DNA of 64,000 nucleotides from a virus. The translations under genes were made by a program, and so were the position numbers. The notes beneath the pieces are model-generated. The model was not told the DNA's origin. It worked only from the letters and a program-made list of their open reading frames with translations, and did not search any database. The stretch is from IMG/VR virus record IMGVR_UViG_3300031369_000001, positions 1 through 64,000 of that record. The stretch is one strand, 5' to 3'. The first letter of the stretch is position 1. The number at the start of each line of letters is the position of its first letter. This document shows, piece after piece, positions 37,335-60,646 of the stretch.

Positions 37335-37351
37335 TATAAAGGATTTTGATT

Positions 37352-38944
37352 ATGGGCATTATTAGTACTTTTCAAGAAATGATGCCTATTGCTACGGATT
37401 TGATAAAAGCTAAACTTGAGCAGTCACGACAAGCAATCAATGTTCAAGCACAACAATTATCTAATCCAGCGCAAAAGGCAGATAATGATCCTAAGTCTAT
37501 TTTCTTTGATCCTTATTCCGTAGTAGAGCAATTTGGCTATAAGGATCGTCCTTCATCTATTACGTATGCTACTTTGTGGAATATCTTTTGTAAGCTTCCA
37601 ATTGTTCAAGCAATTGTATTTTTAAGAATGAATCAAGTAGCGGCTTTTGCTACTCCTCAACAAGATAAATTTTCATTAGGATTTCGAGTAGTATTAAAGG
37701 ATAAGGATAAGAATACTACTAAGCAAGAACAGAGATTCATTGCACAGATGAATAATGTTTTATTAAATACGGGAGTAACAAATAATTCTAGAGGCAGAGA
37801 CAGCTTTAAAACTTTTTTAAAGAAATTAGTATTTGATACCCTTATATATGACCAAATGTGTTTTGAAATAGTTCCTAATAGAAAAGGTCTCCCCGCCGAA
37901 TGGTATGCTACAGATGCAGCTACCATTAGAATTGCAGATAATGGGAATGTATTTAATGATGAAGACAAAACAAAAGAGATCAGATATGTACAGGTATATG
38001 ATGGGGTAGTGATTAACGAATATACCCAATATGAAATGGTATTTGGTGTAAGACACCCTAATACTAATATCAGGCTTCAAGGATATGGGGTAAGTGAATT
38101 AGAATTATTGGTGTCTACAATTACTTCCTTATTGTATGGCCATCAATACAATCAGAAGTTTTTTACACAAGGTTCTAGTGCCAAAGGTATTTTGAATTTT
38201 AAAGGAACAACTAATGCTAAGCAACTTGCTGAATTCAAAAGGCATTGGTACACTTTACTTTCTTCGGTTAATAACGCATGGAAAACTCCTATAACTAATA
38301 CCGAGGGTATCGAATGGGTTAATATGCAGCAGACACATAGGGATATGGAATTTTCTGCGTGGATGGATTTTCTTATTAAAGAAGCTTCTGCTGTATATGC
38401 AACTGATCCAGCAGAAATTAATTTTAATTACGGTAATACTGGTCAATCGAGAGCTTTAGTTGAAAGTTCTTCTGCTGAAAAAATTATAGAAAGTAAAGAG
38501 CGCGGACTACGTCCCTTATTAAATGACGTAGGGGAATTAATTGCCATTCATATAGTGGAACCTATTAACCCTGATTTTACTTTTGAGTTTATGGGGCTTG
38601 ATGCAGAAACAAAAGATAGTGTTGCTAAAAGAAATCAACAAAGAGTTCAAACCTATATTACGGTAAATGAATTAAGGGCTGAAGAAGATAGACCTCCATT
38701 GCCAGATGAACAAGGGGATATTATACTGAATCAGGTTTACATTCAGAACAAACAGCAAACACAAGCAATGCAGCAACAAGAAGAAGGTGATCAAAACGAA
38801 AACGGAATGACACAAGATGAAGAAGGTGATGATGGAAAACAAGATATAAGATCTTTATTATCTAAATATTCTGAGGATGATTTAGTTGATCAAAATGAAG
38901 ATGATGAAGTAAAGAAAAGTTTAGTATTGGATGTAGTTTTATAA
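37352..38944 (+). CDS. portal protein (HK97-like)
   Basis: About 530 aa from the ATG at 37352, eight bases after AAAGGA. The layout is that of HK97/SPP1-type portals: an N-terminal clip of helices, LPIVQAIVFLRMNQVA, beta-rich wing, YGVSELELLVSTI and the long stem helix SAEKIIESKERGLRPLLNDVGELIAIHIVEPINPDFTFEF. The portal is the dodecameric ring for DNA entry. The C-terminal tail is acidic and Gln-rich and ends VKKSLVLDVVL, a possible cleavage site 8 residues from the end. Confidence 0.85.
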   Translation: MGIISTFQEMMPIATDLIKAKLEQSRQAINVQAQQLSNPAQKADNDPKSIFFDPYSVVEQFGYKDRPSSITYATLWNIFCKLPIVQAIVFLRMNQVAAFATPQQDKFSLGFRVVLKDKDKNTTKQEQRFIAQMNNVLLNTGVTNNSRGRDSFKTFLKKLVFDTLIYDQMCFEIVPNRKGLPAEWYATDAATIRIADNGNVFNDEDKTKEIRYVQVYDGVVINEYTQYEMVFGVRHPNTNIRLQGYGVSELELLVSTITSLLYGHQYNQKFFTQGSSAKGILNFKGTTNAKQLAEFKRHWYTLLSSVNNAWKTPITNTEGIEWVNMQQTHRDMEFSAWMDFLIKEASAVYATDPAEINFNYGNTGQSRALVESSSAEKIIESKERGLRPLLNDVGELIAIHIVEPINPDFTFEFMGLDAETKDSVAKRNQQRVQTYITVNELRAEEDRPPLPDEQGDIILNQVYIQNKQQTQAMQQQEEGDQNENGMTQDEEGDDGKQDIRSLLSKYSEDDLVDQNEDDEVKKSLVLDVVL

Positions 38945-40202: not shown

Positions 40203-43200
40203 ATGCACATACAAATAGAAGCAAAGAAGGAAGAACTTTTTTCCAAAAGAGTTTCTTTAGTAAAGTCTATCGCTGATTGCATTGGAGAAGTAGATTCTGA
40301 TTTAAAAAATCGTTTAATAAAAGCGATAGACAATAAAGACAAATTGTTTACTGATCCAGTTTTACTAGAAGTATTGAAGCAATGGGAAATAGGTTATAAA
40401 GACCAAACCAATGCGATGCTTGTTGATATAAGTAAAGTATTGGATAAGGGAAAATTAAATAAGAGTCTTAGTTCTGATCCTTCTTGGATTGGTGTTGATT
40501 TAGATAGGACGTTAGCTGAATATCATGAATATAAAGGCCCTGCTTCTATCGGTAAGCCAATTCCTAGAATGGTTGATAGGGTTAAGGAATGGATTGCTAA
40601 TAATAAAAATGTAAAAATTATGACCGCTAGGGCAAATCCAAATTCTAGCGATTTTAGAGCATCTATTACTGCTATAAAGAAATGGTGCAAAAAATATATT
40701 GGAGAAGAATTACCGGTAGTATACGAAAAAGATCTGCATATGGTTGAACTTTGGGATGACCGAGCTATTCAGATTAAACCTAATACGGGTATTAGGGCAG
40801 ATGGATTAAATAAAAGTGAAGATGAAGGTATTTCATATTTTCATTACGATATAGATACAGATTCCTATATTGAAGACTATAATGAATATTTAAATAAAGC
40901 ACAAAAAGGTCCATTCATTGGTCCACGTGGAGGTAAATGGGCTGATCCAGAACACACCATACCTTGGAAAGAAGAAGTACACAGCTACTCAGAAACTAAA
41001 GACCGATATAGTGATGAAGAAGCTGAACAAATTTTAGATAGAATAGGCGAGGCTTTATATAGTCATCAAGCAATTAATCCTCGTGAAAAAGATGATACTG
41101 GATTTAGTTATGTGGATATGGACAGATGGAGATCTGTAACTGGTGTAAATGCAAAGAGACAATTACTTCAAAAATATAAACGCCAAATAGTCGGTGCTTA
41201 TAGTATTGAAGAATATCATAAATTAGGATTAGCAGATGTAAGAGAAGGTAAGGGATATAAAGCGAACATTAAACCTTATTATAATAAAACTTGGGGAAGC
41301 CTCACCCTTCCGGTAGATGGAAGGGTTGATAGAGATACCTTTAATAAATTTAGAGAGATTAATAGAAAACATAATGTGTGGTTTAGTAATGGCGATAACT
41401 TTATTAAAGAACAATATTTAGATGATTTTGATTTTGAATCTTATAAGAAGGATATGGGGGAAATAGGCATAAAAGTTCACCCAATTAAGGGGGAACGAAA
41501 ACAAAATGTATCTGAAAAAGACGAAAAGGATCTTACTGTAGATGAAGCTTTGCAAAGCATTAAAAATAGAAGGATTAAGGATGCAATTGTTCTTAAGAAA
41601 ATAGGTAAAGATAAATTTGCTTTTTGGTCTACCTATTCTCCAGAATTTAATGATTTGTTTTCTAATAAAACTGGTGGATTGTCCGGTATTTTTTACGCAA
41701 ATAAAGATAATAATTGGGCTAGAGAAACGCATGAATTGAATCTAGTAGAAGAAGCTTTACAACAGATAAAGAAGCAATTGCCTAATTATAAGTTGTATAT
41801 AGATGAAGAAGGTTTGAAAGAAGCACAAAATGAAAAAGCGAGATATCAAGCTGAATTACAAAAGCCAATTCCTGAAGTACAGAAATTATTAGATAGTAAA
41901 TATTCATTATTTCCTTATCAAAATGAAGCAGTGCATTTTTTAGATAAAACAAATGGAAATGCCTTAATTGGGGATTCCATGGGACTTGGAAAAACGCTTG
42001 AAACTTTGGCTTGGTTGGCTAAAGGAAATAAGAAAACAATTTTAGTTGTTCCGAAAGTAGTAAGGCGTACTTGGTTACAAGAAGCAGATAAGTTTTTTCC
42101 AGGGCAGTTTAAAGGAACTGAATTAGTGTCTTCTGATATAAGAAATAATAGAGTTCCAAATTTTAAAGATAAGAACCTTGTAACTGTTAATTATGAATCT
42201 TTAGATAAGTTTTATCCTTATTTAAAGGATGCTGGTTTTGATACAGTAGTAGTTGATGAATCACATAGGATGAAGAATCCTAAAGCTAAACAGACAAAAG
42301 CGATTCAAAAGGTATCGGCATTAGTAAATCATCATATTTTATTGTCTGGAACAGCGGTTAAAAATAAAAAAGAAGAGTTGTTTACCCAGTTAGAAGTTGT
42401 TGCGCCAGGTAAATTTACATCTAAAAATCAAATAAAATTTGCTACTATTGGCGGACTTTGGCGCGATATGAAGGATTTCTATATTGCGAGGAGTAAGGAA
42501 GAAGTTCTAAAAGATTTACCTGAAAAAGTCACTTCTATTATTCAACAAGACATACCTAATTTACCTGATTATGGTGCAAATAAAGATATTGGGGATATTG
42601 CTAAAATTAAAGCTTCTGTAGCAATTGGAAAAGTTCCTGCTACTATTGATTTGGCTAAAGAGATACTAGGTTCTTCTGATTCAAAGATAATTGTGTTTAC
42701 TGATTCAGTTGAGGCAGCTAAAAAGATTCATGAAGAATTAGGTGATATTTCTTTATTGCACCATGGGCAAATGAGCGATGATAAAAGGGAAGCGGTAAAG
42801 GAAGAATTTCAAAAAACAGATGGTAATGGTGATTTCATTTCTCCTAAACGGGTATTCGTAACTACTCGTCAGTCAATGGCTGTAGGAGCTACTTTAACCG
42901 CTGCTGATAAAGTCATTTTTAATGACTTACCTTGGACTGCTGCTGATTTACGACAAGCAGAGGATAGAGCACATAGAATTGGGCAAAAGAACAACGTAAA
43001 TGTTTATTGGGTCACTGCTTCGAATAATTTATTTGATTCTTCAGTTACGGAGATAATTAAAAGGAAATATGAATTATCTAAAAAAGTAAATCAGGGAAAG
43101 AAGCTGACGCAAGAAGAAATTGCATGGATGAATAAGCCGTTAACGGTTAGTGATATATTGAATAAAATACATGGAGGTAAAACGCCTATAGAAGAAGAAA

Positions 43201-45011
43201 AACAATTGCTGATTAAAGAAAATAAACCTGAAGTTCCTGTTATTCCGATAGAAGTACCTAAACAAGAAGAAGAGCAGAAGCCTAAATTTATTATGCAAGA
43301 ACCTGTAAAAGTTAAAGAATCTAAAGATATAATAGATATAAAAAAAGATATTAAAGAAACACAAAATAAGATTGATAAATTAAGAGATAGACAATTAAAA
43401 GATTGGCAATCTGGATCTATAACTCGTAAAAGGACAACTACATATAATGCTGAAATAAGTCGACATAATGATAGGATACAAGAATTAAAAAAGCTTTTAA
43501 ACAAATATGAAGAAAATATTAGTGTAATACAAGAAAAAGAACCTGTAAAAGTTGAAACACAAGAACCTGTTAAAAAGAAACGTGGAAGGCCTCTTGGTTC
43601 TAAAAACATTAAAAGAGTTGCTATTCCTCCAATGGTTATCCAAGAACCTGAAAAAAAGAAAAGAGGGAGACCTCCTGGTTCTAAAAACAAAATGACTCGA
43701 GTTGCTATTAAAGAAGTAACACCTCCTACATTTAAACGAGAAGCTATAAAAGAGGAACCTGTTAAACAAGGTAGGGGAAGGCCACCAAAGCCACAAAGTG
43801 TAAAAGAAGCGGAATCTAGTTTAGCTTACGTTTCTGCTAAGAATATAAAACTTAAAAAAGTTGCTTCTGATGACGTTCACGATGTCTATCAAACTAATTT
43901 TTCTATAGACGTAGATGACGCCAAAATAGCTATGAATAATTTACGTGAGCAAGGTATCAATGCAACGGTGCTAGAAGGAGATCCAGGAATAGTTAAAATA
44001 AGAAAAGGTTTTATAATTAGTGAATCTGATTTATATAAAGCCTTATTCATAGGACCTAAAGGTGGTAAATGGGCAAATGCTGAACATACCATACCTTATC
44101 AAGAAGATATAGTTCGAAAACCTGTTAAGCGAGAACCACCTGGTTCACAGTTAGCAATTGACGTACAAAATAAATTAAAAGAATTGAAAGTAGACAAATT
44201 ACCTCAATCTACTATTCCAATTTCAGACATTAGAATTGATTTAACAGGTAATGTTGATACAAAAGCAATCATTACTTGGAAAGATACTAAAGGAAAAGTC
44301 CAAAGTGGTTATACTCCAAAATTCCATGAAATAAATGCTAAGGAAAAATGGGATAGAATTAATAAATTTAGAAGTAAGAAAAAAGAAATTGTAAATACAT
44401 TAAATGAAAAATTGATTAAGGGGAAACCCGGTAGTATTGACCACCAAGGTTATACTATATTAGCCATTATTGCAGAAACAGGATTACGTCCAGGTAGTAC
44501 TGAAAGTGTTAGAAAGCATGGTCATTACGGTATAAGTACTTTAAAAAAGGATCACATTGCTTTAAATAATAAAATGGCTGTTTTAAATTTTATTGGCAAA
44601 GAAGGAAAGAAGAATGTTACAGTGATTCAAAATCCTGTTACGTTAAAAGCTTTAGAGTATTACGTAAGCAATGCTACCGAAAATGGTAGTATATTTAATT
44701 CCAATGCTTTGGATACTGGTAAAACCATACTTCCTAAAGGAATGAAGGTGAAAGACCTTAGAACAATTAAGGCCACCGAATCAGCGGAAAGATTATTAAA
44801 AGAAGTTGACACTCCTCCTCCATTAACCGGAGATAGTAAAAAGGATAAACGATTATTAGCAAAGGCATTGTTGGAAACAAGTAAAAAAGTGGCTACAATA
44901 TTGAATAATACTCCTAGTATTGCAAAGGCTAGTTATATCCATCCAATGGTATTTGAACAATGGGCAAAAAGTGTAGGAGCATCTGAAAAACTTTGGAAAG
45001 AGGTAGGTTAA
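40203..45011 (+). CDS. giant fusion: HAD domain, SNF2 helicase, AT-hooks, topoisomerase IB
   Basis: A 1602-aa protein. Order: LNKS site (85-88); HAD-like domain with VDLDRTLAEY (D99, D101), MTARA and WDDRAI; sites LNKS near 202 and LNKA near 230 followed by the linker GPRGGKWADPEHTIPW; SNF2 helicase with GDSMGLGKT near 590, DESH near 685 and AEDRAHRIGQ near 917; three AT-hooks (KKRGRPLG, KKRGRPPG, GRGRPPK, 1125-1195); LYKA near 1277 followed by GPKGGKWANAEHTIPY; then type IB topoisomerase with TGLRPGS, FIGKEGKK, KDLRTIKAT and SYIHP with probable catalytic Tyr1578. The AT-hook region also carries KRVAIP, TRVAIK and KREAIK. It is probably cut into parts by the prohead protease and carried in the virion. 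Confidence 0.85.
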   Translation: MHIQIEAKKEELFSKRVSLVKSIADCIGEVDSDLKNRLIKAIDNKDKLFTDPVLLEVLKQWEIGYKDQTNAMLVDISKVLDKGKLNKSLSSDPSWIGVDLDRTLAEYHEYKGPASIGKPIPRMVDRVKEWIANNKNVKIMTARANPNSSDFRASITAIKKWCKKYIGEELPVVYEKDLHMVELWDDRAIQIKPNTGIRADGLNKSEDEGISYFHYDIDTDSYIEDYNEYLNKAQKGPFIGPRGGKWADPEHTIPWKEEVHSYSETKDRYSDEEAEQILDRIGEALYSHQAINPREKDDTGFSYVDMDRWRSVTGVNAKRQLLQKYKRQIVGAYSIEEYHKLGLADVREGKGYKANIKPYYNKTWGSLTLPVDGRVDRDTFNKFREINRKHNVWFSNGDNFIKEQYLDDFDFESYKKDMGEIGIKVHPIKGERKQNVSEKDEKDLTVDEALQSIKNRRIKDAIVLKKIGKDKFAFWSTYSPEFNDLFSNKTGGLSGIFYANKDNNWARETHELNLVEEALQQIKKQLPNYKLYIDEEGLKEAQNEKARYQAELQKPIPEVQKLLDSKYSLFPYQNEAVHFLDKTNGNALIGDSMGLGKTLETLAWLAKGNKKTILVVPKVVRRTWLQEADKFFPGQFKGTELVSSDIRNNRVPNFKDKNLVTVNYESLDKFYPYLKDAGFDTVVVDESHRMKNPKAKQTKAIQKVSALVNHHILLSGTAVKNKKEELFTQLEVVAPGKFTSKNQIKFATIGGLWRDMKDFYIARSKEEVLKDLPEKVTSIIQQDIPNLPDYGANKDIGDIAKIKASVAIGKVPATIDLAKEILGSSDSKIIVFTDSVEAAKKIHEELGDISLLHHGQMSDDKREAVKEEFQKTDGNGDFISPKRVFVTTRQSMAVGATLTAADKVIFNDLPWTAADLRQAEDRAHRIGQKNNVNVYWVTASNNLFDSSVTEIIKRKYELSKKVNQGKKLTQEEIAWMNKPLTVSDILNKIHGGKTPIEEEKQLLIKENKPEVPVIPIEVPKQEEEQKPKFIMQEPVKVKESKDIIDIKKDIKETQNKIDKLRDRQLKDWQSGSITRKRTTTYNAEISRHNDRIQELKKLLNKYEENISVIQEKEPVKVETQEPVKKKRGRPLGSKNIKRVAIPPMVIQEPEKKKRGRPPGSKNKMTRVAIKEVTPPTFKREAIKEEPVKQGRGRPPKPQSVKEAESSLAYVSAKNIKLKKVASDDVHDVYQTNFSIDVDDAKIAMNNLREQGINATVLEGDPGIVKIRKGFIISESDLYKALFIGPKGGKWANAEHTIPYQEDIVRKPVKREPPGSQLAIDVQNKLKELKVDKLPQSTIPISDIRIDLTGNVDTKAIITWKDTKGKVQSGYTPKFHEINAKEKWDRINKFRSKKKEIVNTLNEKLIKGKPGSIDHQGYTILAIIAETGLRPGSTESVRKHGHYGISTLKKDHIALNNKMAVLNFIGKEGKKNVTVIQNPVTLKALEYYVSNATENGSIFNSNALDTGKTILPKGMKVKDLRTIKATESAERLLKEVDTPPPLTGDSKKDKRLLAKALLETSKKVATILNNTPSIAKASYIHPMVFEQWAKSVGASEKLWKEVG
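40914..40979 (+). repeat. linker repeat shared with the MuF fusion gene (copy 1)
   Basis: These 66 bp, coding FIGPRGGKWADPEHTIPWKE and flanks, match 49529-49594 with only three differences. The two giant genes thus share DNA-level homology at module borders. Confidence 0.9.
43576..43790 (+). other. AT-hook region
   Basis: This codes three RGRP-type AT-hooks, two of them as KKKRGRPLGSKN and KKKRGRPPGSKN, plus GRGRPPKP. AT-hooks bind the minor groove of AT-rich DNA, which fits the base composition of this genome. They are rare in phage proteins. Confidence 0.8.
44032..44104 (+). repeat. 73-bp exact repeat shared with the MuF fusion gene (copy 1)
   Basis: The stretch coding YKALFIGPKGGKWANAEHTI and flanks is identical base for base to 48465-48537. 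Third codon positions are also identical, so the copying is recent. Confidence 0.95.
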
Positions 45012-45229
45012 TGCAAGAAAGACGAAATGTAAGAGTTATTGGTAGTAAATTACTACGTATACCCGATGGGTTTATTTCTTGGGAAGAACATTTAAAGGTA
45101 TGGGAAGCATACCATAAGAAATGGAATAATATTCAGTCGGCGGAAAGGATTGCGGAAAGAGGGGGATTTTACATGGATGAAGTTATTGAACTACTTGGAG
45201 AACAACCTAAGACATGGAGAGCACGGTAA
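45011..45229 (+). CDS. hypothetical small protein
   Basis: A 72-aa protein from the ATG overlapping the stop of the giant gene (TAATG). Helical, Trp-rich, basic end. No family recognised. Confidence 0.5.
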   Translation: MQERRNVRVIGSKLLRIPDGFISWEEHLKVWEAYHKKWNNIQSAERIAERGGFYMDEVIELLGEQPKTWRAR

Positions 45230-45366
45230 TGGAAAAAGAATTTAATAAAGAAATGAATGAAGATATTGATGATGATGGAGAATTAGACGTTGAGTGGTAT
45301 CCTATACCGGAAGGATTAAAAGAAGCTTGGAATGAGATTATTTTAGAGGAAGGTGGGGCGAAATGA
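45229..45366 (+). CDS. hypothetical acidic microprotein
   Basis: A 45-aa protein, very acidic (MNEDIDDDGELDVEWYPIPEG). It overlaps both neighbours (TAATG and ATGA), supporting it as real. Could be a DNA mimic or a cofactor of its neighbours; no evidence either way. Confidence 0.5.
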   Translation: MEKEFNKEMNEDIDDDGELDVEWYPIPEGLKEAWNEIILEEGGAK

Positions 45367-45590
45367 GTATAAGGGTGAGTGGTATTTTAGAGATTAATTG
45401 GTCAGTTGAATTGCCGGAAGGGAAAGAACATAGCGGGGTTATTTCAGATGATCCAGTTATTGAAGCCGTTTTAGATTTTATTCCGCAGACAGGTTCTATT
45501 TATTTATGGGGAGAAGATGAGAAACCAGTTGATGTGTTTTTAGAAGTTCATGAAGAAGACATGGAAATAGAAGAAGATGAAAGAGGTTAG
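45363..45590 (+). CDS. hypothetical acidic protein
   Basis: A 75-aa acidic, beta-rich protein (ISVRVSGI-like start IRVSGILEINWSVELPEG) ending EEDMEIEEDERG. No family recognised. Second acidic small protein in a row. Confidence 0.5.
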   Translation: MSIRVSGILEINWSVELPEGKEHSGVISDDPVIEAVLDFIPQTGSIYLWGEDEKPVDVFLEVHEEDMEIEEDERG

Positions 45591-45592
45591 TT

Positions 45593-46582
45593 ATGCGTGA
45601 AAAAGTATTGTGTATTTATCATAATGCGGATTTAGATGGCATTTGTTCAGCAGCTATAGTTTACGATTATTTTAATTGCCAGGGTGATGTTATCGATGGA
45701 AATGTTATTCTATATGGAATGAATTACGGAGATGATTTTCCTTGGTCATTTATAGACAAAGATGAAATGACTGAAGAAGATAAAGAAGATTGTGTTCCTT
45801 ATGACAAGGTAGTAATGGTTGATTTTTCTTTATCTAAAGAAGATATGAAAAGATTAAATAATTTAGTTGATTTAATTTGGATAGATCATCATGTGAGTGT
45901 AATTGCCGACAACAAAGATATTCAAGGTGTGCGCGATATAAATTACGCTGCATGTGAATTAACCTATATGTATTTTCATACAGGAATTACTTATATTGAT
46001 GGAGTACTTGCTTTACCATTAGATGGGGATATGCCAAAAGCTGTTAGATTATTAGGACGTTATGATGTATGGGATCATAGTGATAAAGAAGTAGTACCTT
46101 TTCAATATGGAATGAAATTATACGATATAGGGCCTTGTAATTCTGAATGGAAGGATTTGTTAGATAATTCAGTGATTTCTGATAGTATAATTAAACAAGT
46201 AATTCATAATGGTGAAATAATTGAAAAATACCAAAGTAATTTGAACTATAAATATGTAAATGCATATGGCTTTGTTGCTGTTTTAGAATTTGAAGATGAA
46301 TTGTATAATGTACTGTGTGTAAATAAAGGTTTTAGTAATTCATCTATTGTTAAGGATAGTGCATTATATAACAAATCTATTATTGATTTAATAATGGTTT
46401 TTGTAAGGCATGAGGAGTCTTACAAAGTTTCTTTATATACCGAAAAAGAAATAGATGTATCACAGATAGCAAAAGCTTTTGGGGGTGGAGGACATAAAAA
46501 GGCTGCTGGGTTTATTTGTAGTGGCTTAGAATTTGAAGATTTTAATGGAAATTTGATTATTGACATAGATCCCAATGAATAG
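45593..46582 (+). CDS. DHH-family phosphoesterase
   Basis: A 329-aa protein with the DHH core: YHNADLDGICSA near residue 9-20, MVDFSL near 79, WIDHHVS near 96-102, and a C-terminal DHHA1-type FGGGGHKKAAGF near 297-308. Members degrade short RNAs (nanoRNases), pAp or cyclic dinucleotides. In a phage, nucleotide salvage or removal of a signalling dinucleotide is possible; the substrate cannot be read from the sequence. It lies between the two giant fusion genes. Confidence 0.8.
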   Translation: MREKVLCIYHNADLDGICSAAIVYDYFNCQGDVIDGNVILYGMNYGDDFPWSFIDKDEMTEEDKEDCVPYDKVVMVDFSLSKEDMKRLNNLVDLIWIDHHVSVIADNKDIQGVRDINYAACELTYMYFHTGITYIDGVLALPLDGDMPKAVRLLGRYDVWDHSDKEVVPFQYGMKLYDIGPCNSEWKDLLDNSVISDSIIKQVIHNGEIIEKYQSNLNYKYVNAYGFVAVLEFEDELYNVLCVNKGFSNSSIVKDSALYNKSIIDLIMVFVRHEESYKVSLYTEKEIDVSQIAKAFGGGGHKKAAGFICSGLEFEDFNGNLIIDIDPNE

Positions 46583-47132
46583 AATTCCTATACAGCGATG
46601 GACTGAATTACGAATGCAATATGCATTAACTAGGAAAAATAATCTTTTTGACTTTGGAAGATATGCAGTTGTTCCGAATATTGGTTGGGGGTTAGGACTT
46701 AATCACGAACCTGATTTATTGTGTTTATCTAAAACTGGGATATTTCATGAAGTAGAGATTAAAGTAACTATGGCTGATTTGAAAACAGATAAAGATAAGT
46801 GGCATAATCATTATTCTAGATTTGTTAAACACCTATGGTTTGCTATTCCAGACATTTTATCTATAGATAAGGTTTTAAGCGAAATTCCTGATTATGCTGG
46901 ATTAGTTCAAGTGAGTACTTATTACAATGAATATCCATATAATCAAAAATATTCAAGACAAAAGTATTTAACTCATATAATTAGAAAACCTAGACCAAAA
47001 TTACGAAAAGGGTTGTTTACCGACCCTAAACAAGACACTATTATAAAATTTTTAAGGATTGGAGTTTTGCGAATGTGGACAGATACCTATAGGTTTAAAC
47101 ATTTTGACCGACAAGTAATATTAAAGGGGTGA
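46575..47132 (+). CDS. MmcB/PD-(D/E)XK-like nuclease
   Basis: A 185-aa protein with EPDLLCLSKTGIFHEVEIKVTMADLKTDKDKWHNHY and YAGLVQV. The EPD...EVEIK spacing is a PD-(D/E)XK active site, and the following DLxxDxKWxxY matches MmcB-type DNA repair proteins. The N-terminus MNRIPIQRW is a copy of the recurrent basic motif. Likely DNA end processing. Overlaps the DHH gene by 8 bp. Confidence 0.65.
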   Translation: MNRIPIQRWTELRMQYALTRKNNLFDFGRYAVVPNIGWGLGLNHEPDLLCLSKTGIFHEVEIKVTMADLKTDKDKWHNHYSRFVKHLWFAIPDILSIDKVLSEIPDYAGLVQVSTYYNEYPYNQKYSRQKYLTHIIRKPRPKLRKGLFTDPKQDTIIKFLRIGVLRMWTDTYRFKHFDRQVILKG

Positions 47133-47137
47133 TTATT

Positions 47138-50100
47138 ATGCCGTTAACTCCTGATCAAATATTAGAAATCCAAGATATAATTGAATTACATCATAATGCA
47201 TTTATAGCTAATACAATTGGTCATGATGCGTTACCTGATGAAGTAATTGATGAATTACGAGATAAAGGATTATTGAATAAAGAATCTAAAGACCTTATTA
47301 AGAAGATATATGAATACGGTCAAGTGCTTGGTAAATTGAATAGTCCCCAAGCTTCACAGATGTCCTATAATAGATTTGAAGATTATATTCAAAAAAATCC
47401 ACAACCGTTAACGCAAATGCAACAACGAGCTGTTCGTATGGCCCAAGTGAATGCCGGTCAGTATTGTATGGGATTAGGAAATATAATTGAAAAAGATACG
47501 GGAAGAACTTTAATAGAAGCAGATCAAAGATTTAGAATTGCATATGAGGATAAAATAAAAAATCTTACTGCTTTAAATGCTGCAAGAAGAGAGAGTATTG
47601 AAAAGCTTAGAAGTGATTTAGGTTGGTCTACAGGGGATTGGGCTAGGGATATGAAACGAATTGCTGTAACTGAAATAATGTATTCAACGCAGCAAGGACA
47701 AGCGGATTACCTTAGAAAGAAATATGGAGAAGATGTTTTTGTTGCACGTATTCCTAATCCAGGGGCGTGTAAGCATTGTATTCGTTTACATATTGGTCCA
47801 GATGGGCAGCCTAGAATATTTAAATTATCTACTTTAGAGGAACATGGTAGTAACGTAGGACGAAAACAAAATGATTGGCAAGCTGTAGTTGGCCCAGTTC
47901 ATCCTAATTGTGTATGCAACATGATTAGTGTTCCAAAGGGATGGGGATTCAATGAAGAAGGAGACTTGCTTCCAGGAGGTAAGTTAGGGGAAATATATTA
48001 TGAACCAGAAGAATTAGAAAGGGCTTTAATTGAAGAAAATCTTTTTTATAAATCTTTAAAGGCTAAGGTTAATATAGTTTTCCAAGGAATTCCTATTGTT
48101 ATTGAAACTCCAAAAGGAGATAAGCGAAAATGGATTAATGGAGATGGTTCGATAGGGGAAACCATTATGCAGGAAGCTTCTTATGGATTCGTAAAAAATA
48201 CTACTTCTATGGATGAAGAAGAATTAGATGTATTCGTTGGACCATTTAAAGATTCACCTGTAGTTTATATAATTGATCAAAAGAATCCGGATAATGAACT
48301 ATATGATGAACAGAAATGTATGCTTGGTTTTCGAAATGAAGAACATGCATTAAATGTATATAGAATGAATTACGATAATCCAGATAAATTTATTTATGAC
48401 TGTAGTTCGATGGATATAGAAGCCTTTAAGAGATGGTGTGGGATAGGTATTATTCGAGAAGAAATATATAAAGCCTTATTCATAGGACCTAAAGGTGGTA
48501 AATGGGCAAATGCTGAACATACCATACCTTATCAAGATCCTAGTTTAGCAATGAGAAATAAAGCTAGTAATTTTTATGATGGATTGATTAGTTGGGTAAA
48601 GGATAATAAAGATAATTTACAATTTGATTCAAATGGAAATGTTTATATACAGGCAAATCAATTTACAAATGATAAAAATTTATCGCATTTACATATACTG
48701 ATTACTCCTAAAGGAGTTTTTAGAGGCAATGGTATTGGTAAAACTAGTGATGGGAAAGATGTATTAGTGTTAACTAATTTAAGAAATCCATATGATACTA
48801 CTTATTTAGACACTAGAATAACTAGTAGAGTTATTATACACGAAATATCTCATTATCTTAATGCTGGATACGATAAAGTTCATAATATAGTAACTGAGCA
48901 TGGTAAAGAATATTATAATCAATCTGTCGAATTTGATGCATTTTGGAATGAAGGTGCTGGGGAATTGGAAAGATTTATTCGTAATTTTAAAGACACAAAT
49001 CAACATCATATATTTGAAAGGATAGTAGGAAATTCTCCTGATTTTAAGTACTTTAATAGTAAAGTAAAATCTTTTTGGGATAAAACCTTTTTGAATAGTT
49101 TAACAGAAGCTAATAAGAAAAAATTTGATAAAAGATTATATAGATTATGGGATGATTTAAAAAGCAATATCTATAAATCTAATTACGATTTATCCCCTGG
49201 TCCAGGTTCTGGATTGAATTTCTTTTTAGGTACTAATGTAAATAAACCGAATAGTGGAGGAACTATTCGATATAAAGAAGTATTGGAATTAGGTAAAGAG
49301 GAATTAGAAAAACGTAAAAAGCAAAAAGGTAATAAAGGTATTTACGGGGATATAGAGGATTATCAATTTGGCGAAAACATTATACCGGTTAAAGAATTGA
49401 TAATTCCTGAGACCGTAAAAGAGTCTAAGAAAGAAGCACGGAAGAAAAATAAGGATGTGAATAAATTTGTACTTACTAGAAGATTAAAATGGAAAAAAGG
49501 AAATGTAAATAATTTAAATAAATCATTGTTCATTGGTCCACGTGGAGGTAAATGGGCTGATTCAGAACATACTATACCTTGGAAAGAAGAAGTATCAACA
49601 AATGGTAAATTTGTTGATACTAACGATAGTGCTTTAAGTAACGTATTGGCGGAATTGTTGGGAAAAAATATTCATTTAGAAAAAGTTAGGGAAACAGATA
49701 AAGAGTTGTTTTATAGAGGGGGTAAGGAGTTACTTATTGGTGCTAAGAAGCTAATTAATGCTTTAAAAAATAAAGGATTTAAGGTAGAAATAATTCCGCA
49801 AGGAAAGAACCTTCCTATAGTTGTTTTGAATAAGCCAATAAAAAAAGAACCAATAAAGAAAGAACCAATAAAGAAAGAACCAATAAAGAAAGAACCAATA
49901 AAGAAAGAACCAATAAAGCTATCCAGTGATGAAGTTATAAAACAAGATAAAGTTTTAAAGGATAAAAAGATTTTTAACAAATTAAGTAGTGATTATGTTA
50001 ATAGGATTAATAATATTTACAAAGTATTAAAAGACGATAAAGATTTTAAATACTTTGTAAAATCTATTGGTCATACTAATGTAAAAGATACTATTGAATA

Positions 50101-50683
50101 CTTAATTAATAAATGGAATGAGACAGGAAGTGACCATGATATACATTTAATTATTTTACAAAAAGCTGCGATGGATGAGTTTGGATTGGATAGTGGGACG
50201 ATTAAACATTTTGATAAGAAGTTATTAAATAAGGTACATAAAATACCTAAAACTGTTATGGGGGCAAGAAAATTTATAAGAGCGCAGTATAGTCTTACAC
50301 AAGAATATCTAAAAAAACAGGGGATATCGGAAATTATTCTGTTTAGAGGAATGCAACTTAAAAAGATTAAAAGTGATGGTAGGTCTAAAGAGATTGAAGT
50401 TACTTCCCAACCTCTATCTTCTTGGTCTACTTCTTTTTCAGAGGCTAAAGATTTTTCTGTAAGGGGGGCAGTTGGTAGTTCTTCTTTTTCTAGTGTTTTA
50501 TTGTCTAAAAAAGTTCCTATAGAACAAATATTTTCTATACCAAAGGTTGGTATAGGTGAAAGTGATGAACAAGAATGCGTTTTACTTGGAAATAAGAAAG
50601 ATCCTGAAAAAGTGATTTCTTTAGCTGCTGATTATCATTATATGTATAATATTAATGTAAAACAATTATATGGAGAAAAGTAA
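47138..50683 (+). CDS. giant fusion: MuF, pyrophosphatase-like, metalloprotease, ADP-ribosyltransferase
   Basis: About 1181 aa from the ATG at 47138 (AAAGGGG upstream). Modules in order: SPP1 gp7/MuF head domain with C211KHC214 and HPNCVCN near 258; FYKS near 303; inorganic-pyrophosphatase-like domain (IETPKGDKRKW, YGFVKNT, EEELDVFVGP, DEQKCMLGF), a known MuF-polyprotein partner; IYKA near 443 and GPKGGKW linker; zincin protease with H568EISH572; L793NKS and GPRGGKW linker; a KKEPI repeat; and a C-terminal ADP-ribosyltransferase-like domain with R1070 (LFRGMQL), SWSTS near 1096 and EQE near 1145. MuF proteins enter the capsid with the portal, so these modules are probably delivered into the host. 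Confidence 0.82.
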   Translation: MPLTPDQILEIQDIIELHHNAFIANTIGHDALPDEVIDELRDKGLLNKESKDLIKKIYEYGQVLGKLNSPQASQMSYNRFEDYIQKNPQPLTQMQQRAVRMAQVNAGQYCMGLGNIIEKDTGRTLIEADQRFRIAYEDKIKNLTALNAARRESIEKLRSDLGWSTGDWARDMKRIAVTEIMYSTQQGQADYLRKKYGEDVFVARIPNPGACKHCIRLHIGPDGQPRIFKLSTLEEHGSNVGRKQNDWQAVVGPVHPNCVCNMISVPKGWGFNEEGDLLPGGKLGEIYYEPEELERALIEENLFYKSLKAKVNIVFQGIPIVIETPKGDKRKWINGDGSIGETIMQEASYGFVKNTTSMDEEELDVFVGPFKDSPVVYIIDQKNPDNELYDEQKCMLGFRNEEHALNVYRMNYDNPDKFIYDCSSMDIEAFKRWCGIGIIREEIYKALFIGPKGGKWANAEHTIPYQDPSLAMRNKASNFYDGLISWVKDNKDNLQFDSNGNVYIQANQFTNDKNLSHLHILITPKGVFRGNGIGKTSDGKDVLVLTNLRNPYDTTYLDTRITSRVIIHEISHYLNAGYDKVHNIVTEHGKEYYNQSVEFDAFWNEGAGELERFIRNFKDTNQHHIFERIVGNSPDFKYFNSKVKSFWDKTFLNSLTEANKKKFDKRLYRLWDDLKSNIYKSNYDLSPGPGSGLNFFLGTNVNKPNSGGTIRYKEVLELGKEELEKRKKQKGNKGIYGDIEDYQFGENIIPVKELIIPETVKESKKEARKKNKDVNKFVLTRRLKWKKGNVNNLNKSLFIGPRGGKWADSEHTIPWKEEVSTNGKFVDTNDSALSNVLAELLGKNIHLEKVRETDKELFYRGGKELLIGAKKLINALKNKGFKVEIIPQGKNLPIVVLNKPIKKEPIKKEPIKKEPIKKEPIKKEPIKLSSDEVIKQDKVLKDKKIFNKLSSDYVNRINNIYKVLKDDKDFKYFVKSIGHTNVKDTIEYLINKWNETGSDHDIHLIILQKAAMDEFGLDSGTIKHFDKKLLNKVHKIPKTVMGARKFIRAQYSLTQEYLKKQGISEIILFRGMQLKKIKSDGRSKEIEVTSQPLSSWSTSFSEAKDFSVRGAVGSSSFSSVLLSKKVPIEQIFSIPKVGIGESDEQECVLLGNKKDPEKVISLAADYHYMYNINVKQLYGEK
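48465..48537 (+). repeat. 73-bp exact repeat shared with the topoisomerase fusion gene (copy 2)
   Basis: Identical to 44032-44104. It marks the start of the metalloprotease module. Confidence 0.95.
49529..49594 (+). repeat. linker repeat shared with the topoisomerase fusion gene (copy 2)
   Basis: It matches 40914-40979 with three differences in 66 bp and marks the start of the ADP-ribosyltransferase-side module. Confidence 0.9.
49841..49915 (+). repeat. 15-bp tandem repeat coding KKEPI
   Basis: Five units of AAGAAAGAACCAATA (the first with one change) code (KKEPI)5, a flexible basic linker before the ADP-ribosyltransferase-like domain. Such arrays change in copy number easily. Confidence 0.9.
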
Positions 50684-50898
50684 TGGTAATTAATATTGAT
50701 GAAGATTTAATAAATTCTGATTGGTTAAAAAGTAAATGGAATTTACCTCCATATAAAAGCTTTAAATTTATGGAGATATTGCATAGAGATAAAAAATCTT
50801 TAGATCAGTTTAAGCAATTACCTGTATATAAATGGGCAGTTAAAAATGGATTAATTAAAGATGATGAATGGACAGGTAGTGTAAATGAAGTGCCCTAA
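50683..50898 (+). CDS. hypothetical protein after ART module
   Basis: A 71-aa protein beginning at the one-base overlap TAATG with the giant gene. It could be an immunity or partner protein for the ADP-ribosyltransferase module, purely by position. Sequence MVINIDEDLINSDWLKSKWNLPPYKSF shows no known domain. Confidence 0.5.
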   Translation: MVINIDEDLINSDWLKSKWNLPPYKSFKFMEILHRDKKSLDQFKQLPVYKWAVKNGLIKDDEWTGSVNEVP

Positions 50899-51085
50899 TT
50901 GTCGTAATCAAATAATCCAAAGAACTGATGATGGATTTAAATTACACGTAAAGGGGAGGATTATTTGGAAAGGAGATATATGTGAATCTAAATGTTATTG
51001 GTGTGGCGAACCCATTAAAGTGGCGTTGCCAGTTGATTTATCCAAAGCTATTAGGGGGAAAGAGCGTTATGTCATTAAGCGCTAA
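50885..51085 (+). CDS. zinc-ribbon protein
   Basis: A 66-aa protein with CPNCRNQI and CYWCGEPI 31 residues apart, a treble-clef-like zinc ribbon. It ends 4 bp inside the convergent minus-strand gene, with no terminator visible between. Confidence 0.6.
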   Translation: MKCPNCRNQIIQRTDDGFKLHVKGRIIWKGDICESKCYWCGEPIKVALPVDLSKAIRGKERYVIKR

Positions 51086-51396
51086 TTGATTAGATATGTA
51101 GCGTCTCCCATCTCATACGTTAAAATGAATTGTAGTACGGCGGCTTCAGTGTTAAATTGATTATATAGTTCTTTAACGCTACTTTGATTGTCAATTTGGC
51201 TTTTAATCTCCATTAAACTATTTTCGTGGTAAAATGAAGAAATGAATGTATGTGGGAGTCTATATCCAATACCTAAGTATAGTGTATGGATACAAAATAG
51301 ATATAGCAAATCTTCATTTGACAGATAGATTCCTTCTTCTAAATCTTTCATGAGTTTTCGTGCTTTTTCGATTGACGATATTTTTTTATTTTTCAT
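51082..51396 (-). CDS. hypothetical protein, last gene of minus-strand operon
   Basis: A 104-aa helical protein (KNKKISSIEKARKLMKDLEEGIYLSNEDLLYLFCIHTLYLG). It overlaps its upstream neighbour by 11 bp. No family recognised. Confidence 0.55.
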   Translation of the reverse strand: MKNKKISSIEKARKLMKDLEEGIYLSNEDLLYLFCIHTLYLGIGYRLPHTFISSFYHENSLMEIKSQIDNQSSVKELYNQFNTEAAVLQFILTYEMGDATYLIN

Positions 51397-51634
51397 TTTT
51401 GGCCTCCATATTTGTTTTTAGGTTGTTTATATTCCATTGTTGTTCCGTTTCCCTTCTCATTTTATCTATTTCTTCTGAATAGATAACTTTGAAAATTGTT
51501 TCTTTTGATTCATATTCGTTTAGCCCCATACAGGCAGGGCACCGAATTATCCATTTACACGTTAAATCCTTATGGTTCGCCCACAAGTATGAAAATGGAG
51601 GTTTGTTGTGCTTTTTACAGTTATTCAGTTTCAT
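51386..51634 (-). CDS. Lar-like zinc protein 1 in minus-strand operon
   Basis: An 82-aa protein: C..H near the start (NCKKHNKPPFSYLW), then WIIRCPACMGLNEYE and a late EQQWN. The order is like Lar-type proteins and like its upstream neighbour, though with a Cys replaced by His. Confidence 0.5.
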   Translation of the reverse strand: MKLNNCKKHNKPPFSYLWANHKDLTCKWIIRCPACMGLNEYESKETIFKVIYSEEIDKMRRETEQQWNINNLKTNMEAKNEK

Positions 51635-57530: not shown

Positions 57531-58322
57531 ATGCCTCAAGAAATTCCTACAAATGATTTTAGACTTTCTGTAGGAGAAGCTTCTTTTTTTACAAAAGCTT
57601 CAGCTCCCGAAGGACAACAACGTCGAATAGGTGGTGTTGTTTCTACAGAAACTCCGGATAGACAAGAAGAAACTCTTATTCAAAATGGTTTAGATTTTTC
57701 TGAATTTGTAAAATATGGTTGGTTTAATGACAACCATTCTAATCCTAAAGTGAGTCATACCTGTAATTTAGTAGGGTATCCTGAGTTAACTGAACGTTTT
57801 CAAAAAGGTGATAGGTTGCCTGATGGAAAAATTGCAAAAGCAGATTGTCATTGGGCAGAGGGGTATTTGTTAGAAGGTTATTCACCTGCTGATGAATTGT
57901 GGAATCTTGCCTGTGCCTTAAATAAGACCCCCCGTAGATTGGGTTTTTCAGTTGAAGGTAAAATTCAACGAAGAGATCCATTAAATAAGTCTACTGTTAC
58001 AAAGGCAATTGTTAGAGAAGTAGCAATTACAAAAGCCCCTGTTAATACAGATACACAATTAAATATATTAGCAAAGGCTCTTTCTATGGGTACTTCTATT
58101 CCAGGCAATTCTGTCGATGGAGATAAAACCGGGGAAAATGCTGGGCAAGTTCTTGCTCAGGAATCCTTAGAGAAGAAAAAGAAAAAGAATTTAAAAAAAG
58201 GTTTAACGGATAGTCAAGCGTTTGCTTGGTTATCTAATCATTTACCCAATATATCCCCTGAATTAAAAGGGAGAATAATCTCGTTGACTCGGGATTTAAA
58301 ATTGCAAAATAAATTGCATTAA
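57531..58322 (+). CDS. prohead protease (HK97 gp4-like)
   Basis: A 263-aa protein. The family core is clear: GGVVSTETPDRQEE, the catalytic His in NDNHS (H69) and the catalytic Ser in RLGFSVEGKI (S140). Such serine proteases cut scaffold and capsid inside the prohead. The C-terminal part has LNKS, VTKA, ITKA and LAKA sites, and FTKA lies near the N-terminus, suggesting self-processing at the same motif as in the scaffold and the giant fusions. It starts the head operon. Confidence 0.85.
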   Translation: MPQEIPTNDFRLSVGEASFFTKASAPEGQQRRIGGVVSTETPDRQEETLIQNGLDFSEFVKYGWFNDNHSNPKVSHTCNLVGYPELTERFQKGDRLPDGKIAKADCHWAEGYLLEGYSPADELWNLACALNKTPRRLGFSVEGKIQRRDPLNKSTVTKAIVREVAITKAPVNTDTQLNILAKALSMGTSIPGNSVDGDKTGENAGQVLAQESLEKKKKKNLKKGLTDSQAFAWLSNHLPNISPELKGRIISLTRDLKLQNKLH

Positions 58323-58338
58323 TTAAAAGGAGTTAGTT

Positions 58339-59157
58339 ATGAAAAGACAGCCAATGCAAAATGATGATGAGATGAAGAACAAGAAAGATCAGATGGATGA
58401 GGATAACGAAGATTCTCAAATGGAAGAAGAAGAAAAGTCTTGCGGTACTAAGAAATCACAAGACCTAACCGAAGATGACCTCAGTAAAGCTGTTGAGGTA
58501 TTAAATGATTATGTCAATACGACTGATCCAAATTCTCGAAAAGAGACTTTATTGAAAAAAGCAATGACTGATGATCTTTCTTCTGAAGAGATGAATGAAC
58601 TATTTAAATCTTTAAGTGGTTCTGAAAATTCAAATACGGAAGAAGTTAATGATTTTTCTGATTCTGTTCTTAATTCATTAGAATCTGATACTATTCAGAA
58701 ATCATTAGATGTTTCTGATTATTTAACAGAATTGCATAGTGGATTAGTTAAATCGCTTAGTACGTTAGAAGGAGAATTAAATAGTAATGCTATGCGTCAG
58801 CATACATTTAATATTACTCTTGCTAAGAGCATGGTTTCTGTTGTTACTGGGTTACAGCGTACAATGAATGTTATTTCTGAATTAAAAAAATCTATGGACA
58901 ATTATAGTGAAGCCCCTATTAGAAAGCCAACATCTGTTCAACCTTTAAACAAAGCTTTTGTTGGACACAATGGGCAAGAAGGGCAGTCTTTAAAGAAATC
59001 TGAAATGATGGGACAATTACTCTATCTTGCAGAGCAAGGAGTTGATAACATTGGGGGAGTTAGTGTAAATCATGCGGTTGCTTTACTGGAAAGTAGCAAT
59101 CAATTACCTAATCAAGTTGTTAGTGCTTTAAAAGCTAGACAAGGAGCTACTGCTTAA
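58339..59157 (+). CDS. scaffolding protein with repeated protease sites
   Basis: A 272-aa acidic, helical protein between protease and capsid genes, the usual scaffold position. It contains LSKA, LKKA, LFKS, IQKS, LVKS, LAKS, LKKS (twice) and LNKA, about one site per 30 residues, which fits a scaffold that is chopped up during maturation. The N-terminus MKRQPMQNDDE is a degenerate form of the basic motif. Confidence 0.75.
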   Translation: MKRQPMQNDDEMKNKKDQMDEDNEDSQMEEEEKSCGTKKSQDLTEDDLSKAVEVLNDYVNTTDPNSRKETLLKKAMTDDLSSEEMNELFKSLSGSENSNTEEVNDFSDSVLNSLESDTIQKSLDVSDYLTELHSGLVKSLSTLEGELNSNAMRQHTFNITLAKSMVSVVTGLQRTMNVISELKKSMDNYSEAPIRKPTSVQPLNKAFVGHNGQEGQSLKKSEMMGQLLYLAEQGVDNIGGVSVNHAVALLESSNQLPNQVVSALKARQGATA

Positions 59158-59158
59158 T

Positions 59159-59195
59159 AATGAGGGCAGAGCTTATATATAATTGTGCCCTCATT
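59159..59195 (+). terminator. stem-loop before the capsid gene
   Basis: AATGAGGGCA (59159-59168) pairs perfectly with TGCCCTCATT (59186-59195). No U-tract follows, so it may protect or process the capsid mRNA rather than end transcription. Confidence 0.55.
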
Positions 59196-59215
59196 GGGCT
59201 TAAAAGGAGTTAAAA

Positions 59216-60646
59216 ATGTTAGAGAACATGGTTAGTTTTTCAGATTATGATGGCATCGAGGGATATGGAAGTGTTCAGCAGCAAGAAGTAGTTGACTTGA
59301 ATAAAGCTTTAACTGCTGGACAAGATATAGCGGCGCCTACTGTTGCTGCTGGAGAAGGCTTTCCTTTACGGGTTGAGTCTTTAGAGAATACCTTAAAAAC
59401 GGTTACCTTTACGGCAAAAGAAATTGTTTTTTGGAAAGCTATTCCCAAAATCCCTGCATACAATACGGTGGAAGAGCATAATCAGATTTCGAATTATGGA
59501 TCTAATGAGGATTCTGGATTCATTCCGGAAGGTGCGCTTCCTGAAAGTGATGATTCTACTTATGCGCGAAAGTACGCGGTGGTAAAGTTTTTAGGTACTA
59601 CTCGATCTGTAACTCATGTAATGAGTCTCGTTCGGCCAGCGCATGGTAACGTTATCGCCAATGAAACCGTTAATGGAACATTGCATTTACTTCGTATTTT
59701 GGAAAAAGCTCTTTATTACGCGGATTCTTCTTTATCTGCTGTTCAATTTGATGGCTTTAATAAGCTAATTACGGATAATGCAGATTCTGATCATGTATTA
59801 GATTTAAGAGGAGCGCCTCTTACCGAGGATATTTTATCGGACGCAGTAGCTACTGTTAGAACTTCTTATGGATTTCCTACTCATCTTCATTTAAACCATA
59901 AGACTAAGTCGGAATTAACTAAGACATTTTTCCCCAAAGAGCGACATAATACTTTTACTGATAATAGTGGTATTATTGGTAATAACATTACTGGGTTTAC
60001 TTCTGAATCAGGTATCGTTCAATTTGTAAGTAATACTTTTCTTACTGGTAACACTGCTTCTTATAATTCCGCAGCAATTGGGGACGCAACTAAAATCCCT
60101 GGAACACCTACTATCAGTACTTCATTAGCTGCTTCTGGTACGGCAGCTCCGTTATGGACTGCGGATGATGCTGGGAGCTATTATTGGACTGTCGTTGCGT
60201 GCAATCGTTATGGGAGGTCAGCTCCAGTGGACGCAAATGAGGCCGGAGGTGCTTTTGCCGTTGCCACTACGCAAACAGTTACTTTTGGTGTAACACCGTC
60301 AACTACTGGAGGTGCCGGGGCTACTGAATGGTACGAAATTTATCGTACTAAAAAGGGTGGGGCGGATGGTACGGAGAAATTAATTCAACGTATCGTGAAC
60401 TCTAATACTACAAGTGAACAAACAATTACGGATTTGAATGCAAGTCTCCCGGACACTACCAATGCCTTTTTACTTCAGCAGAATATTGATAGTCTTTCAT
60501 TTAAACAATTAGCTCCGATGGTTAAAATCCCATTAGCGACTATTGCGACAGCCGTTCGTTGGTGTCAGGTTCTTTATGGGGTTCCTGTGCTTTATGCCCC
60601 GAATAAGAATTTCTTATTTAAGAATGTGGGAAAGAATAACTACTAA
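59216..60646 (+). CDS. major capsid protein (HK97 fold) with inserted Ig/Fn3-like domain
   Basis: A 476-aa protein preceded by AAAGGAG. The N-terminus has LNKALTAGQDI near residues 28-38: an LxKA site whose cut would leave a mature start similar to HK97 gp5. The core shows an HK97-type E-loop/spine and C-terminal LATIATAVRWCQVLYGVPVLYAP. Residues about 290-405 (GTPTISTSLAASG...AGSYYWTVVACNRYGRSAP...EWYEIYRTKKGG) look like an inserted fibronectin III/Ig-like domain, probably displayed on the capsid surface. GC content is higher than nearby, as in strongly expressed genes. Confidence 0.85.
   Translation: MLENMVSFSDYDGIEGYGSVQQQEVVDLNKALTAGQDIAAPTVAAGEGFPLRVESLENTLKTVTFTAKEIVFWKAIPKIPAYNTVEEHNQISNYGSNEDSGFIPEGALPESDDSTYARKYAVVKFLGTTRSVTHVMSLVRPAHGNVIANETVNGTLHLLRILEKALYYADSSLSAVQFDGFNKLITDNADSDHVLDLRGAPLTEDILSDAVATVRTSYGFPTHLHLNHKTKSELTKTFFPKERHNTFTDNSGIIGNNITGFTSESGIVQFVSNTFLTGNTASYNSAAIGDATKIPGTPTISTSLAASGTAAPLWTADDAGSYYWTVVACNRYGRSAPVDANEAGGAFAVATTQTVTFGVTPSTTGGAGATEWYEIYRTKKGGADGTEKLIQRIVNSNTTSEQTITDLNASLPDTTNAFLLQQNIDSLSFKQLAPMVKIPLATIATAVRWCQVLYGVPVLYAPNKNFLFKNVGKNNY

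What the first reader, a model, noticed from the sequence alone, without database searches (positions are those of the whole stretch)
50250..50683. C-terminal ADP-ribosyltransferase-like effector in a MuF polyprotein
Seen: LFRGMQL, then SWSTS, then EQE in the order R...STS...ExE of arginine-type ADP-ribosyltransferases, at the end of a MuF head protein and behind a cleavage-type site and a KKEPI linker. Known: T4 Alt and related enzymes are injected to modify host RNA polymerase; MuF proteins often carry toxins. Inference: an injected host-modifying enzyme.
Basis: partly seen in the sequence, partly recalled or inferred. Interest (0 to 1): 0.78.

Follow-up and report, generated by a model that had tools for sequence, protein, structure and literature searches.

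The report
Phage head ADP-ribosyltransferase with partner gene
The end of a large phage head protein is an ADP-ribosyltransferase, an enzyme that probably tags host proteins after injection, and the small gene next to it belongs to an undescribed family that accompanies this enzyme in nearly every phage where either is found.

Summary
The 1184-aa protein (47129-50683) ends in an R-S-ExE ADP-ribosyltransferase (ART) domain. In 93 non-redundant relatives R1073 and E1149 are invariant and E1147 is E in 88, Q in 5. AlphaFold2 gives a confident model (pLDDT 85, pTM 0.82) and every leading PDB match is an ART, though single scores are weak (Z at most 6.5). Pfam DRAT, not Alt, is the family that relatives ring (17 of 39).
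The N-terminus has the MuF Cys/His signature, but Pfam MuF does not ring. The gene lies between portal and head-protease/capsid genes. Head packaging and injection are inferred.
New here: the downstream 71-aa ORF (50683-50898) belongs to an unlisted family (D-W-x-K...W-D-L-P; F...LPVY). With the ART as bait its motif adjoins 32 of 33 evaluable loci (chance about 0.01 per locus). With the ORF as bait, nearly all loci carry the ART. Seven of 51 non-redundant pairs are fused in one polypeptide; one protein has the module twice. A 97%-identical sister phage lacks both genes.
Best reading: injected mono-ART effector plus dedicated partner, more likely an inhibitor (like Bsi for Bxa) than a cofactor. 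Biochemistry is untested.

The parts
47129..50683 (+). MuF-like head polyprotein, 1184 aa, GTG start: MuF-like region, InPase domain, metallopeptidase-like region, linker, ART
47141..48050 (+). MuF-like N-terminal region; CKHC 47768-47779 and HPNCVC from 47900
   Evidence: 28-32% identity to stand-alone 286-311-aa proteins of other phages, in LysYB1 two genes before the portal; invariant C-x2-C...H-x2-C-x-C; Pfam PF04233 does not ring
48065..48439 (+). InPase (polyvalent-protein pyrophosphatase-like) domain
   Evidence: PF18823, E 3.8e-30
48464..48538 (+). inter-domain motif FIGPKGGKWANAEHTIPY (copy 1 in this protein)
48839..48853 (+). HEISH, zinc-metallopeptidase-like motif of the middle region
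   Evidence: sequence; no Pfam match, inferred
49511..50866 (+). block absent from the sister phage L066: second GPRGGKW motif, linker, ART and most of the partner gene
   Evidence: blastn of window against L066: pieces 43559-49510 and 50867-51402 join at L066 8348-8370; ORFs
49514..49594 (+). inter-domain motif FIGPRGGKWADSEHTIPWKEEV (copy 2 in this protein)
49835..49918 (+). KKEPI linker, 15-bp tandem repeat, 5.6 copies
49919..50680 (+). ADP-ribosyltransferase domain (P0003), aa 931-1184
50345..50347 (+). predicted catalytic Arg R1073 (LFRGM)
   Evidence: 93/93 R
50417..50428 (+). Ser motif S1097-S1098-W-S1100
   Evidence: 85, 85 and 67 of 93 Ser
50567..50575 (+). ExE motif, E1147 and predicted catalytic E1149
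   Evidence: E1149 93/93; E1147 E in 88, Q in 5
50683..50898 (+). partner protein, 71 aa; start codon overlaps the ART stop (TAATG); N-S-D-W-L-K-S-K-W-N at 50713-50742

Best explanation
The C-terminal 250 residues are an active R-S-ExE mono-ADP-ribosyltransferase carried as cargo on a MuF-like head protein. It is probably built into the capsid and passed into the cell with the DNA, where it transfers ADP-ribose from NAD+ to host protein side chains; ExE predicts arginine. The next gene encodes its dedicated partner. I think it most likely that the partner binds the ART and holds it inactive while virions are made (a non-enzymatic immunity protein or, in the natural fusions, an auto-inhibitory domain). 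Shown: ART fold prediction, conserved catalytic residues, head-gene context, near-obligate pairing with the partner family, joint absence from a sister phage. Inferred: NAD-dependent activity, arginine preference, packaging, injection, host target, and the sign (inhibitor or cofactor) of the partner's action.
For: ART: 54 viral loci encode relatives; R and second E 93/93; Pfam DRAT in 17/39 relatives, best E 1.2e-11, over the catalytic half; model pLDDT 84.9, pTM 0.82; PDB ranks 1-5 all ARTs and the leading structural matches all ARTs, Vis Z 6.5, iota Ia 6.1, VIP2 5.9; a second model from a relative gives the same. Delivery: portal at 37346, head protease, scaffold and major capsid protein at 57531-60646; MuF-type Cys/His signature; relatives fused to or beside portal, MuF and head-morphogenesis domains. 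Partner: ART bait 30/33, 32/33 with SP-15 (partner upstream) and L017 (S-E-D-W-L-K), chance about 0.01 per locus; partner bait, ART found in all but four of the loci, three of the four exceptions cut at contig or locus ends; fused in 7 of 51 non-redundant pairs, tandem in L081; natural fusion models as ordered (pTM 0.81, partner blocks pLDDT 70-88); both absent from sister virus L066. Precedent: Bxa, a prophage MuF-ART toxin blocked by small Bsi (PMC11699363); MuF toxins usually followed by a small ORF (PMC5576092).
Against: No biochemistry. Single fold matches are weak (Foldseek E 0.013, Z at most 6.5). Pfam MuF does not ring on this protein. The partner is better conserved than the ART (48% against 33% mean pairwise identity, but on a set chosen by partner score) and co-varies only weakly with it (r 0.14), unlike a fast-evolving toxin-immunity pair. 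Natural fusions mean partner and ART would be delivered together, which does not suit a purely protective immunity protein unless the fusion is cut. No packaging evidence for this phage.
Confidence: 0.6

Rival explanations
1. The partner is not an inhibitor but an obligate positive subunit or docking module: it completes, targets or anchors the ART, is packaged with it (sometimes in the same chain) and acts in the new host.
For: In-cis fusions and the tandem ART-partner-ART-partner protein; partner more conserved than the ART and weakly co-varying; the D-W-x-K segment also heads much larger downstream proteins, e.g. L016, L023, L027, L043; predicted ordered in the fusion model.
Against: A single small gene directly downstream is the usual place of immunity genes, and orphan partner genes without ART sit in three bacterial contigs, odd for a cofactor.
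Confidence: 0.28
2. Polymorphic MuF toxin used by lysogens against competitors, with the 71-aa gene as host-expressed immunity.
For: Bxa and Apk2 precedents; the block is present or absent between close relatives.
Against: No tyrosine-recombinase match in the 102.6-kb record (a fragment is possible and serine integrases were not sought); no alternative toxin seen at the same place, only absence.
Confidence: 0.15
3. The ART is a degenerate or NAD-binding domain without transferase activity, kept for a structural role in the head.
For: Predicted structure matches are weak; no activity shown.
Against: R and E invariant in 93 sequences of about 33% mean identity.
Confidence: 0.05

Closest known systems
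Bxa with Bsi and BAH, Bacteroides stercoris prophage (PMC11699363)
   Same: MuF-type head protein with a C-terminal ART and small adjacent genes, one blocking the ART by binding
   Different: no ADP-ribosyl hydrolase found in this virus record; this partner is a different-looking family of about 55-75 aa, sometimes fused to the ART; sequence kinship of the two ART domains not tested
DraT (Pfam PF07357 DRAT)
   Same: the only Pfam ART family that many relatives ring, over the catalytic half; R-S-E type
   Different: the window domain itself does not ring; no DraG-type hydrolase found in the record; phage head cargo, not nitrogenase control
T4 Alt and the Alt/VIP2 ARTs fused to MuF (survey PMC9503650)
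   Same: R-S-E ARTs, head packaged or predicted so, injected
   Different: VIP2 is only one of many equal structural neighbours; an Alt homologue sits low in the viral fold search (rank 31); the partner gene is not mentioned in the passages read
Polyvalent proteins (PMC5512222) and Pfam ART-PolyVal
   Same: multi-domain phage protein with MuF-like, InPase and metallopeptidase-like parts
   Different: the ARTs described there are chiefly of the H-Y-D clade; this one is R-S-E
Bacillus phage SP-15 SP15_258 and SP15_257
   Same: the only cultured phage found with the pair: ART 32%, partner 56% identical
   Different: annotated hypothetical; partner lies upstream; ART on a 469-aa protein without a Pfam match

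Membership tests
R-S-E ADP-ribosyltransferases | Arg on the first core strand | tested here: met
   R1073, 93/93
R-S-E ADP-ribosyltransferases | Ser motif on the second core strand | tested here: met
   S at two positions in 85/93; the T and last S of 'STS' not conserved
R-S-E ADP-ribosyltransferases | catalytic Glu, ExE or QxE | tested here: met
   E1149 93/93; E1147 88 E, 5 Q
R-S-E ADP-ribosyltransferases | ART fold | tested here: met
   prediction only; leading matches all ARTs, Z at most 6.5
R-S-E ADP-ribosyltransferases | NAD-dependent transfer to a target | not testable with these tools
   needs an assay
DRAT (PF07357) | Pfam score of this domain over the cut-off | tested here: not met
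   window protein does not ring; 17/39 relatives match at E<=0.01, some above the cut-off
MuF (PF04233) | Pfam score over the cut-off | tested here: not met
MuF (PF04233) | C-x2-C...H-x2-C-x-C signature (own knowledge) and place in the head module | tested here: met
   invariant in the alignment with five distant relatives; head-gene context
T4 Alt family | closest kin among ARTs | tested here: inconclusive
   an Alt homologue appears at rank 31 of the BFVD search with a weak score; no direct sequence comparison made
MuF polymorphic toxin-immunity systems | small downstream gene that neutralises the toxin | not testable with these tools
   linkage shown; neutralisation needs an assay
MuF polymorphic toxin-immunity systems | different toxin domains on the same carrier | tested here: inconclusive
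   sister L066 lacks the block, L067 is cut off; no alternative toxin seen
Curated families, including known immunity families | partner matches a library family | tested here: not met
   partner and 8 relatives ring nothing meaningful in Pfam, PHROGs or NCBIfam

The most novel reading that the evidence does not exclude
ART and D-W-x-K partner form a two-part effector built, packaged and injected together, with the partner switching or aiming the enzyme in the new host; the larger proteins that begin with the same segment would be extra cargo docked on the ART.
Probability: 0.25. Interest if true: 0.78.

Novelty: new variant of a known kind. Interest (0 to 1): 0.6.

Why it matters
Phage ARTs on head proteins are known, but how a phage keeps such an enzyme harmless while it is made, and switches it on after injection, is largely open. 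A small partner family that follows one ART clade across very different phages, is sometimes fused to it, and is in none of the family libraries searched gives a direct handle on that question. It also offers a marker for annotating dozens of 'hypothetical' phage proteins, with Bacillus phage SP-15 as a culturable model.

Tried and rejected
Single-sequence searches with the ART domain found nothing in IMG/VR or the PDB; the profile was needed. Alt kinship: not supported by family hits. ADP-ribosyl hydrolase partner: not found in this record. Pfam hits Hemocyanin_N (ART) and DUF1473 (partner) are below cut-off and were discarded. Plasmid ARTs: the Rhodococcus L004 gene overlapping the ART stop carries a partner-like W-D-V-R-N-x-D-G segment, by eye only; no D-W-x-K neighbour was seen at the ART end of L002, L003, L005 or L006. 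Genome-collection hit L140 is judged spurious. Matches of the fusion model that run to residue 331 on pertussis-type toxins (Z 3.4-3.8) are too weak to place the partner.

Full report
The window is part of a 102,614-base IMG/VR virus record. ORF 47129-50683 encodes 1184 aa. From the N-terminus: a MuF-like region (about aa 5-290), an InPase domain (PF18823, aa 313-437, E 3.8e-30), a first GPKGGKW motif, a region with HEISH, a second GPRGGKW motif, a KKEPI repeat and the C-terminal domain of the finding.

Observation. Single-sequence searches with the domain found nothing in IMG/VR or the PDB, but tblastn found Bacillus phage SP-15 SP15_258 (32%, E 3e-21) and actinobacterial plasmid proteins. 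A profile of these found 54 loci in IMG/VR. In 93 non-redundant homologues R1073 and E1149 are invariant, E1147 is E in 88 and Q in 5, and two Ser stand at 85/93. The search pattern covered only the upstream F-[LIV]-R-A-Q-Y-x-x-T-Q stretch, so these columns are independent of how the set was found.

Identity. Seventeen of 39 relatives match Pfam DRAT, best E 1.2e-11, aligned over the catalytic half. AlphaFold2 on the 39-row alignment gives pLDDT 84.9, pTM 0.82. Foldseek against the PDB: ranks 1-5 are Vis, ART2.2 and cholera toxin A, E 0.013 or weaker. The structural aligner's leading rows are all ARTs: Vis Z 6.5, iota Ia 6.1, VIP2 5.9, C2-I, C3, ExoS, HopU1 and a toxin/immunity ART. Scores are modest and unrelated folds can reach such Z, but the uniform ART list plus the conserved residues make the assignment firm. 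A model of a relative's natural fusion gives the same kind of list.

Carrier and context. PF04233 does not ring on the window protein, but aa 5-280 align with stand-alone proteins of Lysinibacillus, Bacillus, Chryseobacterium and Bacteroides phages, with invariant C-x2-C...H-x2-C-x-C. In LysYB1 this gene lies a few genes before the portal. In the window the portal is at 37346-38944, head protease at 57531, scaffold at 58339 and major capsid protein at 59216. PF04233 rings in 6 of 39 ART relatives and PHROG head-morphogenesis or portal families in several. Packaging and injection therefore fit known MuF cargo but were not shown.

The partner. P0002 (50683-50898) has homologues at 40-60% identity beside the ART in many loci, including SP-15 SP15_257 at 56%, which lies upstream of the ART. 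Two counts test the link. ART as bait: 30 of 33 evaluable non-redundant loci have [NDEQ]-x-D-W-x-[KRQH] at the ART or ORF end, against about 0.01 expected per locus; L014 (SP-15) has it upstream and L017 has S-E-D-W-L-K, giving 32 of 33. The regex was written after looking at these loci, so that count is descriptive; the second count is the independent one. Partner alone as bait: 63 loci. Three of them (L012, L013, L044) were already ART loci; of the 60 newly fetched, 56 carry the ART profile, mostly 60-400 bases upstream, so 59 of 63 in all. A few of these 60 are the same contigs as loci of the first scan (for example SP-15 and the L022, L015 and L016 contigs), so the two sets overlap. Of the four exceptions L084, L109 and L116 are cut at contig or locus ends; L110, after a portal fusion, is a true one. 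The partner lies in the ART polypeptide itself in L057, L063, L076, L077/78, L079, L115/117 and L118, and L081 holds ART-partner-ART-partner: 7 of 51 non-redundant pairs passing the score filter are fused. Pfam, PHROGs and NCBIfam give no meaningful match, and among 50,697 phage records only SP-15 matches.

Joint absence. Virus L066 (97% identical over the MuF-like region, 103 kb) has a 794-aa version ending ...KGNINEVP and then the same next gene. Window 49511-50866 is missing there, with a 23-base stretch of L066 matching both flanks. Neither ART nor partner was found elsewhere in that record (the ART profile does ring in the window's own record). L067 (90%) keeps a second GPRGGKW motif there but is cut off, so loss in L066 is at least as likely as gain in the window.

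Mechanism. The pair resembles Bxa-Bsi, where a prophage MuF-ART is blocked by a small bound protein (PMC11699363), and MuF toxins in general, usually followed by a small ORF (PMC5576092). That favours an inhibitor. Three facts point elsewhere: the partner is more conserved than the ART, co-varies with it only weakly, and is sometimes fused to it. The fusion model is ordered as a whole (pTM 0.81; partner blocks pLDDT 70-88), but no coordinates or PAE were available, so where the partner sits is unknown. Orphan partner genes in three bacterial contigs (L136-L138) suit immunity but may be prophage remains.

Known or new. ARTs on MuF and polyvalent proteins are described (PMC9503650, PMC5512222). 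Text searches found no account of this DRAT-like clade with its partner, within an open-access library that misses much of the literature. I rate it a new variant of a known kind.

Noticed in passing
window 36378, 40905, 44031, 48464, 49514: A roughly 20-residue motif (F-I-G-P-R-G-G-K-W-A-D-P-x-H-T-I-P-W-K-E) lies between domains of three large proteins. In IMG/VR a pattern for its core gave 96 stretches; in the 80 read, 129 copies in 96 ORFs (median 894 aa, 1-3 per ORF), with flanking H, T-I and W conserved outside the pattern. No paper in the library holds GPRGGKW. Role unknown: processing site, packaging signal or linker.
   Followed up: partly
window 44032-44104 and 48465-48537: Two copies of that motif are identical over 73 nt in two different genes, suggesting recent gene conversion or shuffling of modules.
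   Followed up: no
window 40203-45011: 1602-aa protein combining SNF2 helicase and a eukaryotic-type topoisomerase I catalytic core (PF01028, E 8.4e-17) with two copies of the motif.
   Followed up: no
L044 2921-5104: One protein with MuF, the DRAT-like ART and a second ART-PolyVal match (below cut-off) at the C-terminus.
   Followed up: no
L136 6001-6195, L137 5748-5918, L138 6001-6150: Orphan partner genes in a Limnochordales MAG, a Burkholderiales MAG and Melghirimyces profundicolus, no ART within the 6 kb fetched on each side.
   Followed up: partly
L110 1234-3955: The one true partner locus without ART: partner after a portal protein with repeated L-x-S-L-E-G-C-P-K-E-V-G-G-D-F units.
   Followed up: no
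L074 5683-6192, L084 1379-1944: A conserved ORF of about 100-118 aa sits between a metallopeptidase-bearing polyprotein and the partner gene; possibly the partner of the metallopeptidase.
   Followed up: no
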